Shown here one piece after another: positions 1 to 9,999 of a DNA stretch of 35,911 nucleotides (the first letter of the stretch is position 1; the number at the start of each line of letters is the position of its first letter). Below the pieces are notes generated by a model. The model had not been told where the DNA came from. It did no database searches and worked only from the letters and a program-made list of their open reading frames with translations. The stretch covers positions 1 to 35,911 of the forward strand of contig JAOASL010000029.1 in assembly GCA_030158675.1 (NCBI GenBank), read 5' to 3'. The translations under genes and the position numbers were made by a program. This DNA comes from Burkholderiaceae bacterium. Its GTDB lineage: Bacteria; Pseudomonadota; Gammaproteobacteria; Burkholderiales; Burkholderiaceae_D.

Positions 1-354
1 CTGTACCGGCAATGGGGCTGCGACGTGATCGGCATGACCAACATGCCCGAGGCGAAGCTCGCGCGCGAAGCCGAGATCTGCTATGCCAGCGTGGCAATGG
101 TCACCGATTTCGACTGCTGGCATCCCGGACATGCGCACGTTACGGTCGACCAGATCATCGCGGTACTGCTCGCGAACGCGGACAAGGGCCGCTCGCTGGT
201 AAAGCATGTGGTGCCGCAGCTGAAAGACGATGCGCATGCGGCCGACTGCCCGTGTCGCAGCGCACTGCAGCACGCACTGATCACCGCGCCTGACGCACGC
301 GATCCGGCAATGATGGAAAAGCTGTCGGCAATCGCCGGAAGGATGCTGGCATGA
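1..354 (+). CDS. mtnP: S-methyl-5'-thioadenosine phosphorylase, 3' part only
   Basis: This is the C-terminal 117 residues of a purine nucleoside phosphorylase of the MTAP type; the start lies before the window. The enzyme splits methylthioadenosine (and, in many bacteria, 5'-deoxyadenosine) with phosphate into adenine and the 5-substituted ribose-1-phosphate. The open frame begins at base 1 and carries the family's hallmark segment WGCDVIGMTNMPEAKLAREA, followed by EICYASVAMVTDFDCW, which shape the purine and methylthioribose pocket. The TGA at 352-354 overlaps the ATG of the next gene (ATGA), a sign of translational coupling. The neighbours, an aldolase, apt and mtnA, use both products of this reaction, which supports MTAP over a general nucleoside phosphorylase. 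Substrate preference between MTA and 5'-deoxyadenosine cannot be read from this fragment. Confidence 0.93.
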   Translation: MYRQWGCDVIGMTNMPEAKLAREAEICYASVAMVTDFDCWHPGHAHVTVDQIIAVLLANADKGRSLVKHVVPQLKDDAHAADCPCRSALQHALITAPDARDPAMMEKLSAIAGRMLA

Positions 355-1004
355 GCATCCTGGTTCGCGAACAGATCGTCGCCGCCTGCAAGAAACTGGA
401 GTTCAGCGGACTCAATCGTGGCACTTCCGGCAATGTCAGTTGCCGCGAGAAAGACCATTTCCTCGTCACGCCCAGCGGCGTGGCGGTCGACGAAATCACC
501 CCGAGCCGCATTGTCGCGGTCGGCTATGACGGCAAGGTGATCGGCATCGGCAAGCCATCCAGCGAGTGGCATTTTCATTGCGACATATTGAAGGCGCGCG
601 CCGACATCGGCGCCGTGGTGCACACGCATGCACCGTATGCGACCGCCATCGCCTGCCTGCGCGAGGACATCCCGGCCTTTCACTACATGATCGCGGTCGC
701 CGGCGGCGACTCGATACGCTGCGCGCCGTATGCGCTGTTCGGCACCGATGAATTGTCGCGCCATGCGCTCGACGCCCTCGAGGGCCGCAAGGCTTGCCTG
801 CTCGCGAACCACGGCATGATCACGCTTGGCCGCGATCTTGATGAAGCGATGGCGGTCGCGGTCGAAGTCGAGTCGCTGTGCCAGCAATATCTGCTAGCGC
901 GGCAGGCCGGCAAGCCGACCCTGCTGTCGACCGAAGAGATGCAAAGCGTGATTGAAAAATTCAAGACCTACGGCAGGAATGCCCAGACTCCGGCAAAGCC
1001 ATGA
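351..1004 (+). CDS. class II aldolase, fuculose-1-phosphate aldolase type (probable DHAP-shunt aldolase)
   Basis: A 217-residue zinc-dependent class II aldolase, the normal length for this family. The zinc and catalytic residues of E. coli FucA (E73, H92, H94, H155) line up one to one with E72 (SSEWHFH), H91 and H93 ([12 protein letters not shown]) and H154 (LLANHGMI). The family cleaves ketose-1-phosphates to dihydroxyacetone phosphate and an aldehyde. Lying between mtnP and apt-mtnA, it most probably cleaves 5-methylthioribulose-1-phosphate and/or 5-deoxyribulose-1-phosphate to DHAP plus methylthioacetaldehyde or acetaldehyde. This is the role of Ald2 in Rhodospirillum rubrum and of DrdA in Bacillus thuringiensis. 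MtnB, the dehydratase of the classical methionine salvage pathway, is a distant relative. However, the CAPYALFGT and ANHGMI stretches look aldolase-like, and no mtnC or mtnD is seen here. The substrate is an inference. The gene overlaps both neighbours by ATGA. Confidence 0.85.
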
Positions 1005-1528
1005 ACATTAAGTCACTCATCCGCACGATTCCCGATTATCCGAAATCCGGTATCCAGTTCCGCGACATCACCACGCTAATCAAGGATGCGCAAGGCTTCA
1101 AAGCCACCATCGACGCTCTGGTCGATCGTTATCGCAGCCAGAACATCACCCAGGTGGCCGGCACCGAGGCGCGCGGCTTTTTGTTCGGCGCGCCGCTGGC
1201 ATATGCGCTGGGCGTGGGCTTCGTACCGGTACGCAAGAAGGGCAAATTGCCCGGCAAGACCACCGGTCACGAATATGCCTTGGAATATGGACATGACCGT
1301 ATCGAAATTCATGACGATGCGATCGGCGCTGGCGACCGCGTGCTGGTGGTCGACGACCTGCTTGCCACCGGTGGCACCGCGCAGGCTACCGTGATGCTGG
1401 TGCGCGCGCTCGGCGGCGAAGTCAGCGAGTGCGCATTCGTGGTCGACCTGCCCGACCTCGGTGGCCGCGCGAAGCTCGAGAACATGGGACTGACGGTCTT
1501 CACGCTATGTGCATTCGAAGGCCATTGA
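1001..1528 (+). CDS. apt: adenine phosphoribosyltransferase
   Basis: A 175-residue type I phosphoribosyltransferase that converts adenine and PRPP to AMP and pyrophosphate in the cytoplasm. The N-terminus ([18 protein letters not shown]) is the characteristic adenine-PRT start. The PRPP-binding signature [14 protein letters not shown] spans residues 114-127, and the flexible-loop region KKGKLPGKT is at 79-87. The ATG at 1001 overlaps the stop of the aldolase gene (ATGA), so the two are likely coupled translationally. Placement next to mtnP makes sense because MTA phosphorolysis releases adenine, which this enzyme returns to the nucleotide pool. Length and motifs are complete and nothing is unusual. 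Confidence 0.97.
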
Positions 1529-1529
1529 G

Positions 1530-2627
1530 ATGAGTGACGCCAAAAACGGCGACGGCGCGGCCGTCGTCACTCTGCGCTGGCATGACGCTCCCGGCCATGG
1601 CCGGCTCGACATGATCGACCAGACCCGGCTGCCGGCTGTCTTCGACTACCTGCGATACGACTCCGCGGCCGGCGTTGCTGACGGTATACGTACGATGGTC
1701 GTCCGTGGCGCGCCGGCCATCGGGGTGGCCGCCGCCTACGGTGTGGCGCTGGAGGCGCTGCGTCTGAACGCAATGCACGCGCTGAACGGCATCGAATACG
1801 ATGCGGCGCTCGACAGCGCAGTGCGCTTGTTGGCGGACAGCCGGCCGACGGCGGTCAACCTGTCATGGGCGCTGCAGCGCATGCAGCAGCGGCGCGCCGC
1901 GCATGCGCAATCGCATCCGGGGTCAGGCAGCGCCACGCTCGCGCAAGCGCTGCTGACCGAAGCGAAATCCATCCACGCAGAAGACGTACAGATCAATCGC
2001 CGGATGGGCGCGCATGGCGCAACGCTGCTGGCGGACGGCGCACGCGTGCTCACGCACTGCAATGCCGGCGCGCTCGCGACCGCCGGTCACGGAACGGCGC
2101 TCGGCGTGATCCGCTCCGCCGTTGCGGCAGGCAAGCGAATCAGCGTGATCGCCGACGAGACCCGTCCCTTCCTGCAGGGTGCGCGGCTGACTGCATGGGA
2201 AATGGTGCAGGAAAACATACCGCTGACGCTCATCACCGACAACATGGCCGGCCATCTGATGGCGCAGGGCGAGATCGACGCAGTCATCGTCGGCACCGAC
2301 CGTGTGGCCGCGAATGGCGACGTGGCCAACAAGATTGGCACCTATATGGTGGCGGTGCTGGCGGCGCGCCACCGGATACCGTTCTACGTCGCCTGCCCGC
2401 TGTCAACCATCGACCTGTCGGTCCCAAGCGGCCGCGAGATTCCGATCGAGGAACGCGCAGCAAGTGAAGTAACCGGCTTCAGGGATACCCAGTGGGCGGC
2501 CGTCGGCGTGAATGTGCGCAATCCGTCGTTTGACGTGACACCGGCCGATCTGGTGACAGCATTGATCACCGAGCGCGGCATCGTGCATGCGCCGGATGAG
2601 CGCAAGCTGCGCGCACTGTTCGAGTAA
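1530..2627 (+). CDS. mtnA: S-methyl-5-thioribose-1-phosphate isomerase
   Basis: A 365-residue isomerase related to the eIF2B alpha/beta/delta fold. It interconverts methylthioribose-1-phosphate (also 5-deoxyribose-1-phosphate in shunt pathways) and the ribulose-1-phosphate form. Visible family motifs are VVRGAPAIGVAAAYG (about 58-71), the catalytic cysteine in THCNAG (C177), IADETRPFLQGARLTAWE (about 207-224) and the catalytic aspartate in VGTDRVAANGDVANKIG (D257). GREIPIEER (301-309) is also present. A GTG at 1509 would open the same frame, but it lies inside apt. The ATG at 1530 sits just behind the apt stop with GAAGG about 8 bases upstream and is preferred. It is the last gene of the operon and supplies the substrate of the upstream aldolase. 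Confidence 0.96.
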   Translation: MSDAKNGDGAAVVTLRWHDAPGHGRLDMIDQTRLPAVFDYLRYDSAAGVADGIRTMVVRGAPAIGVAAAYGVALEALRLNAMHALNGIEYDAALDSAVRLLADSRPTAVNLSWALQRMQQRRAAHAQSHPGSGSATLAQALLTEAKSIHAEDVQINRRMGAHGATLLADGARVLTHCNAGALATAGHGTALGVIRSAVAAGKRISVIADETRPFLQGARLTAWEMVQENIPLTLITDNMAGHLMAQGEIDAVIVGTDRVAANGDVANKIGTYMVAVLAARHRIPFYVACPLSTIDLSVPSGREIPIEERAASEVTGFRDTQWAAVGVNVRNPSFDVTPADLVTALITERGIVHAPDERKLRALFE

Positions 2628-9895: not shown

Positions 9896-9999
9896 GAGCC
9901 TGTCCCTTTAGGTTGATGGCAAGGCGGCTGTACCGCAGACAGTACCAACGTAGGGCAAGGGAGGCCAACGCTGTCAGCGGCCTTACGGCACCGGCTCTT
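9894..9999. repeat. interspersed element with inverted ends, copy A
   Basis: A 106-bp block beginning on the last bases of the ABC exporter stop. Its ends are imperfect inverted repeats (AAGAGCCTGTCCCTTTAGG against CCTTACGGCACCGGCTCTT). Inside are AGGTTGATGGCAAGG, CGCAGAC, GGGCAAGG and CAACGCTGTCAGCGGC. The same words in the same order occur at 18928-19024 (copy B), so both are diverged members of one intergenic repeat family. It carries no coding capacity of its own and looks like a MITE or REP-like element. Confidence 0.75.

What the first reader, a model, noticed from the sequence alone, without database searches (positions are those of the whole stretch)
1..2627. Complete-looking DHAP shunt for methylthioadenosine and 5'-deoxyadenosine
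mtnP, a FucA-like class II aldolase, apt and mtnA overlap or abut in one operon. Seen in the sequence: ATGA overlaps, MTAP and MtnA motifs, and aldolase zinc and catalytic residues at E72, H91, H93, H154. Known: in Rhodospirillum rubrum and Bacillus thuringiensis an aldolase of this type cuts methylthioribulose-1-phosphate or 5-deoxyribulose-1-phosphate into DHAP and an aldehyde. Inference: this strain recovers adenine and DHAP and releases methylthioacetaldehyde or acetaldehyde. The variant using a phosphorylase plus apt, without nucleosidase and kinase, is less described than the MtnN/MtnK form.
Basis: partly seen in the sequence, partly recalled or inferred. Interest (0 to 1): 0.78.

Follow-up and report, generated by a model that had tools for sequence, protein, structure and literature searches.

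The report
Ordinary MtnP-type DHAP shunt operon
Four neighbouring genes in a bacterium close to the Oxalobacteraceae look like a known recycling line that turns toxic leftovers of S-adenosylmethionine chemistry into adenine nucleotide and sugar fragments; it is a good example of a described pathway, not a new one.

Summary
Window 1-2627 carries the 3' end of mtnP, a FucA-like class II aldolase, apt and mtnA, joined by two ATGA overlaps and a one-base gap. mtnP is cut by the contig edge; its first 195 codons lie on another contig that overlaps the window by 55 exact bases. Searches of the genome found no MtnD, MtnB or MtnN, no MtnK over the cut-off and no RuBisCO-like protein. Best reading: the known DHAP shunt. 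The same gene order stands in 27 of 30 family loci and in other families. Two refinements: apt as a recurrent operon member, not found in print by my searches, and 5'-deoxyadenosine as the likelier main substrate, since two MTA-forming families were not found against 12 radical SAM matches. The aldolase's substrate is inferred from context; sequence alone does not separate Ald2 from FucA. New member of a known kind, low interest.

The parts
1..354 (+). mtnP, 3' part (117 codons) of S-methyl-5'-thioadenosine phosphorylase; the first 195 codons are on contig C24 of the same genome
   Evidence: NCBIfam PRK08931 7.9e-56 over profile 174-289/291; the 5' piece matches the same model over 3-191; 55-base contig overlap
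351..1004 (+). ald2/drdA-like class II aldolase, 217 aa
   Evidence: PF00596 8.7e-60; FucA 1fua 4.4e-56; below the fucA equivalog cut-off (202 of 400.25 bits) and the mtnB cut-off (75.4 of 137.05)
1001..1528 (+). apt, adenine phosphoribosyltransferase, 175 aa
   Evidence: TIGR01090 231.8 bits over cut-off 185.85
1530..2627 (+). mtnA, S-methyl-5-thioribose-1-phosphate isomerase, 365 aa (the mechanical GTG start at 1509 would overlap apt)
   Evidence: TIGR00512 433.2 bits over cut-off 279

Best explanation
An operon for the MtnP form of the DHAP shunt. MtnP splits 5'-deoxyadenosine (and methylthioadenosine) with phosphate into adenine and 5-deoxyribose-1-phosphate (or methylthioribose-1-phosphate); Apt puts the adenine back as AMP; MtnA isomerises the sugar phosphate to the ribulose form; the aldolase cuts it to DHAP and acetaldehyde (or methylthioacetaldehyde). 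Shown here: gene identities, order, conservation, and lack of the tested alternatives in the genome. Inferred: all substrates, co-transcription, and that 5'-deoxyadenosine is the larger input.
For: Family assignments. The same four genes in the same order in 27 of 30 family loci (own locus included), 5 of 29 order loci, one of 29 phylum-draw loci (L051) and 7 of 80 named loci, with 2 more showing mtnP-ald-apt and no mtnA; some named and unnamed loci may be the same genome. mtnA within about 1.5 kb of the aldolase in 25 of 29 order loci and in the same locus in 62 of 80 named loci (up to 4.5 kb of flank). Own genome: PF01048 finds only the two mtnP pieces, so no MtnN; no ARD/MtnD; none of the five PF00596 proteins passes an MtnB model; MtnK below cut-off, at most 64.1 of 275 bits; the one RuBisCO-family protein passes the RuBisCO large-subunit model (774.8 over 438) and has a small subunit beside it. 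Published enzymology: PMC6079011, PMC5893883, PMC10986504 (passages). 12 radical SAM matches, no PF02675 (AdoMet decarboxylase), no PF03942 (DTW).
Against: By profile the aldolase set is closer to E. coli FucA (273 bits) than to the B. thuringiensis aldolase 6btd (207.3), and the tree does not split FucA cleanly from shunt-linked aldolases. In the phylum-wide draw only 10 of 29 loci show mtnA near the aldolase, and 13 of 80 named loci show the aldolase alone. Two family loci keep mtnP-apt-mtnA without an aldolase in the cluster (L168, L176). The full-length MtnP relative of L072 also just passes the methylthioinosine phosphorylase cut-off (226.5 of 223), though it scores far higher on the MTA model (511.9 of 437). 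A spermidine-synthase-family protein is present (32 bits over the Pfam cut-off 22.9; 205.7 of 304 on the aminopropyltransferase model), so MTA from polyamine synthesis is not excluded. AHL synthase and other MTA sources were not searched. No enzyme here has been assayed.
Confidence: 0.86

Rival explanations
1. Nucleoside pentose route: MtnP acts mainly on adenosine, MtnA on ribose-1-phosphate, and the aldolase is a ribulose-1-phosphate aldolase giving DHAP and glycolaldehyde.
For: The aldolase scores 191.9 bits on the haloarchaeal ribulose-1-phosphate aldolase model, close to its 202 on the fucA equivalog.
Against: Below that model's cut-off of 300; MtnA passes the MtnA equivalog and is below the ribose-1,5-bisphosphate isomerase one (191.2 of 314.1); the 5' phosphorylase piece scores 346.4 on the MTA model against 72.4 on the purine nucleoside phosphorylase model.
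Confidence: 0.07
2. The aldolase is a true L-fuculose-phosphate aldolase that happens to lie in an mtn operon.
For: 50% identity to E. coli FucA over residues 8-208 and aligned active-site residues; closer to FucA than to 6btd by profile.
Against: Fails the fucA equivalog cut-off (202 of 400.25 bits) while E. coli FucA passes (444.7); the next gene downstream is a periplasmic binding protein on the other strand, not a fuc gene; linkage to mtnA recurs across families. The genome was not searched for fuc genes.
Confidence: 0.05
3. Start of the universal methionine salvage pathway with the aldolase-fold protein acting as the MtnB dehydratase.
For: mtnP and mtnA are shared with that pathway (PMC5893883), and MtnB models do match the first half of the protein weakly.
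Against: 75.4 bits on the mtnB equivalog against cut-off 137.05, with only residues 9-104 aligned; no MtnD found in the genome.
Confidence: 0.02

Closest known systems
DHAP shunt of Rhodospirillum rubrum and Rhodopseudomonas palustris (MtnP, MtnA, Ald2)
   Same: Same three enzymes and phosphorylase entry; in R. rubrum the three genes are in one operon (PMC5893883, passages)
   Different: Here the aldolase lies between mtnP and apt, and apt is in the operon; no RuBisCO-like protein found, so no MTA-isoprenoid shunt beside it by that test
5-deoxyribose disposal cluster DrdK-DrdI-DrdA of Bacillus thuringiensis
   Same: Isomerase and class II aldolase giving DHAP and acetaldehyde (PMC6079011, passages)
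   Different: Kinase entry there, phosphorylase entry here; aldolase profile closer to FucA than to 6btd (that 6btd is this DrdA rests on the paper naming the entry once, and on recall)
E. coli mtnK-mtnA-ald2 with Pfs
   Same: Same final two steps (PMC10986504, passages)
   Different: Nucleosidase plus kinase there; neither found here at cut-off
mtnP-ald-apt-mtnA clusters of Oxalobacteraceae, Burkholderiales and Nitrotoga records
   Same: Same four genes in the same order (L071-L075, L099, L106; Gallionellaceae L114 and L143 without a detected mtnA)
   Different: Downstream gene differs in the one case compared: EAL/GGDEF protein in L072, periplasmic binding protein in the window

Membership tests
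DHAP shunt, MtnP form | MTA/5dAdo phosphorylase gene | tested here: met
   Two contig pieces rank MTAP models first; neither piece alone reaches the PRK08931 cut-off of 437 (189.6 and 346.4); the full-length relative in L072 does (511.9)
DHAP shunt, MtnP form | MtnA isomerase gene | tested here: met
   TIGR00512 433.2 bits over 279
DHAP shunt, MtnP form | class II aldolase with the Glu and three His of the FucA/DrdA active site | tested here: met
DHAP shunt, MtnP form | aldolase cleaves 5-deoxyribulose-1-P or methylthioribulose-1-P | not testable with these tools
   Needs an assay
DHAP shunt, MtnP form | aldolase groups with assayed Ald2/DrdA apart from FucA | tested here: inconclusive
   No assayed Ald2 or DrdA sequence was in the tree; FucA sits among aldolases without same-strand mtnA, long end branch 0.84, some of which have divergent mtnP-mtnA; profile nearer FucA than 6btd
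DHAP shunt, MtnN/MtnK form | MTA nucleosidase and MTR kinase | tested here: not met
   PF01048 only the mtnP pieces; MtnK 64.1 of 275 bits at best
Universal methionine salvage | MtnB dehydratase and MtnD dioxygenase | tested here: not met
   MtnC was not searched
MTA-isoprenoid shunt | RuBisCO-like protein (RLP) | tested here: not met
   The only RuBisCO-family protein found passes the large-subunit model, with a small subunit beside it
L-fuculose-phosphate aldolase (FucA) | fucA equivalog cut-off | tested here: not met
   202 of 400.25 bits; E. coli FucA 444.7

The most novel reading that the evidence does not exclude
In this genus the operon is a dedicated 5'-deoxyadenosine recycling line for radical SAM enzymes, returning the whole molecule (adenine as AMP through Apt, C3 as DHAP, C2 as acetaldehyde), with methylthioadenosine a minor or absent substrate because the cell makes little of it.
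Probability: 0.35. Interest if true: 0.35.

Novelty: new member of a known kind. Interest (0 to 1): 0.17.

Why it matters
It adds a clear phosphorylase-type example with adenine recapture built into the operon, in a family where an MtnA match was found in only 38 of 392 genomes searched. If the 5'-deoxyadenosine reading is right, it gives a clean organism for asking what the pathway does with little or no methylthioadenosine.

Tried and rejected
Considered and rejected: MtnB dehydratase, true FucA, MtnN/MtnK form, MTA-isoprenoid shunt (see membership rows). The RuBisCO-family hit on C45 was first taken as a possible RuBisCO-like protein; it passes the large-subunit model and lies beside a small subunit (PF00101) and an AAA protein. 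The MtnK hits on C30 are one 335-residue frame below cut-off. One origin of the mtnP-ald-apt-mtnA order was tested: the tree needs 9 changes, at least 3 forced by starred branches, so the order is not one clade. In that quick tree I left out the copies of the window locus (L001, L007, L008, L151), repeated identical proteins, and rows with under 180 aligned query residues (own-genome L002 and L004 among them). Two remote own-genome aldolases (L003, L005) were kept and have end branches of 9 to 10. Labels count only same-strand genes whose matches start within 3.5 kb, so L064-L066, with mtnP-mtnA divergently beside the aldolase, are labelled as aldolase alone, and loci with 1.5 kb flanks may hide neighbours. 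Structure prediction was not run, as the family was clear from sequence. Papers not held: 10.1111/mmi.14459 and 10.1073/pnas.1711625114; I know their content only through papers that cite them and from recall.

Full report
What is there. The window is the whole of contig C29 of its genome (3.0 Mb in 49 contigs, 100% complete and 0% contaminated by the tool's figures). The aldolase's nearest named relatives are Oxalobacteraceae records (67-72% identity); the organism itself is not named. Bases 1-354 are the last 117 codons of mtnP; 351-1004 a class II aldolase; 1001-1528 apt; 1530-2627 mtnA. Two ATGA overlaps and a one-base gap make one transcription unit likely (inference). The other part of mtnP lies at the end of contig C24 (C24:9457-10014 by the family match; start codon at L006 1474), and the last 55 bases of C24 equal the first 55 of the window. 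mtnP is therefore most likely interrupted by assembly, not by biology, and reads as about 294 codons.

Identity of the parts. Both mtnP pieces rank the MTA phosphorylase model PRK08931 first. The full-length protein of L072 passes its cut-off (511.9 of 437 bits), and also just passes the methylthioinosine phosphorylase cut-off (226.5 of 223). Apt and MtnA pass equivalog cut-offs. The aldolase passes no NCBIfam cut-off among the 25 of 29 families shown: best are fuculose-phosphate aldolase models (224.8 of 264, 216 of 264, 202 of 400.25), then the haloarchaeal ribulose-1-phosphate aldolase (191.9 of 300), with MtnB far behind (75.4 of 137.05). As a control, E. coli FucA scores 444.7 on the fucA equivalog. 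Glu72, His91, His93 and His154 line up with Glu73, His92, His94 and His155 of FucA, and Tyr112 and Tyr207 with its Tyr113 and Tyr209 (roles recalled, apart from the glutamate, which PMC6079011 describes for DrdA Glu76). All six are invariant in the 13-sequence alignment A1.

Conservation. Of 200 order genomes 82, own included, have a match at 1e-20, many of them remote. In the 29 best order loci besides the own one, mtnA lies near the aldolase in 25, and the full order mtnP-ald-apt-mtnA in 5. Of 398 phylum genomes 51, own included, match at 1e-45; among the 29 loci L042-L070, 10 show mtnA near the aldolase on either strand, one of them (L051) in the full four-gene order. In the family, an MtnA match was found in 38 of 392 genomes, own included, three of them only 49-53% identical; of the 21 same-genus genomes in the rows shown, own included, 18 have it (334 genomes without a match were not listed). 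Of the 30 family loci kept (own included), 27 have the full four-gene order, one lacks apt (L172) and two lack the aldolase (L168, L176). So the four-gene unit is a regular feature of this genus and recurs in other families.

Tree. A quick tree of 159 aldolases puts the window in an 18-row group (SH-aLRT 97) that is wholly mtnP-ald-apt-mtnA. The order as a whole needs 9 changes on the tree, at least 3 forced, so it arose, moved or was lost more than once. E. coli FucA falls among aldolases labelled as having no same-strand mtnA (21 of 22 rows of that fork), on a long branch; some of those (L064-L066) do have mtnP and mtnA divergently beside them, so the tree does not prove a FucA/Ald2 divide. 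Profile scores are also nearer FucA (273) than 6btd (207.3). The case for the shunt thus rests on gene context more than on sequence.

Rest of the genome. PF01048 finds only the two mtnP pieces, so no MtnN and no other member of that family was found. No MtnD. The four other class II aldolase-family proteins pass no MtnB model. MtnK hits are below cut-off. The one RuBisCO-family protein passes the large-subunit model and lies beside a small subunit. PF02675 (AdoMet decarboxylase) and PF03942 (DTW; that E. coli-type DTW enzymes release MTA is recalled) are not found; as controls the first rang in 8 of 14 known genomes, E. coli among them, the second in 2 of 14, E. coli and M. jannaschii, over the cut-off in one of the two. 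One spermidine-synthase-family protein is present (over the Pfam cut-off; 205.7 of 304 bits on the nearest aminopropyltransferase model). PF04055 gives 12 radical SAM matches, all over the cut-off. This favours 5'-deoxyadenosine as main input, but AHL synthase and other MTA sources were not searched, so it stays an inference.

Literature. I read passages, not whole texts, of six papers; four of them are the four that one search listed for 'DHAP shunt' with 'methylthioadenosine'. PMC10986504: the E. coli form uses Pfs, MtnK, MtnA and Ald2, and the other known variation uses MtnP in place of nucleosidase and kinase. PMC5893883: in R. palustris MtnP and MtnA are needed for growth on MTA, Ald2 leads to 2-(methylthio)ethanol by a route partly redundant with the MTA-isoprenoid shunt, and about 6.5% of sequenced bacteria in KEGG had homologues of all three. 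PMC6079011: three-gene clusters with kinase or phosphorylase in six phyla, with biochemistry and structure of DrdA. PMC8102628: the Synechococcus mtnP mutant excretes both 5'-deoxyadenosine and MTA. PMC6302742 reviews the pathways. PMC12632272 treats regulation in E. coli. 'DHAP shunt' with 'phosphoribosyltransferase' gave 0 papers. A search for three or more of mtnP, adenine phosphoribosyltransferase, methylthioribulose and aldolase gave 7 papers; one, PMC12502724, holds all four terms and was seen only in the listing. A search joining the shunt with Burkholderiales and Oxalobacteraceae gave 442 papers with two or more terms; of the 10 shown none holds both the shunt and either group name. 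So I found no statement in that library that apt belongs to this operon; it may stand in papers not held or not opened.

Verdict. What is left over is modest: apt as a recurrent operon member, and a possible 5'-deoxyadenosine bias.

Noticed in passing
L006 1314-1412 (contig C24, about 60 bases upstream of the mtnP start) and window 9897-9999: A palindromic repeat of about 100 bases with 19-base arms stands just upstream of mtnP; a diverged copy (81% over 90 bases) stands right after an ABC transporter gene in the window. It looks like a small mobile palindromic repeat and could affect mtnP expression. Not found by exact pattern in the other 180 loci held.
   Followed up: partly
L168 and L176: Two family members keep mtnP-apt-mtnA without the aldolase in the cluster, so either the sugar phosphate has another fate or the aldolase is elsewhere.
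   Followed up: no
L089 3401-5124 and L138 3408-5115: Methylotenera and Azonexus records have a two-gene mtnA-aldolase unit; by eye no kinase or phosphorylase lies beside it (upstream of the L089 pair is a TatD protein). Its MtnA is 44-47% identical to the window's, against about 70% or more in the four-gene clusters.
   Followed up: partly
L038 (contig C45): The genome carries RuBisCO large and small subunits with an AAA protein (CbbX-like, name recalled) beside them, suggesting carbon fixation.
   Followed up: partly
L006 109-864, minus strand, contig C24: A 251-residue frame on the other strand upstream of mtnP reads like a C39-peptidase-type protein (by eye, not searched).
   Followed up: no
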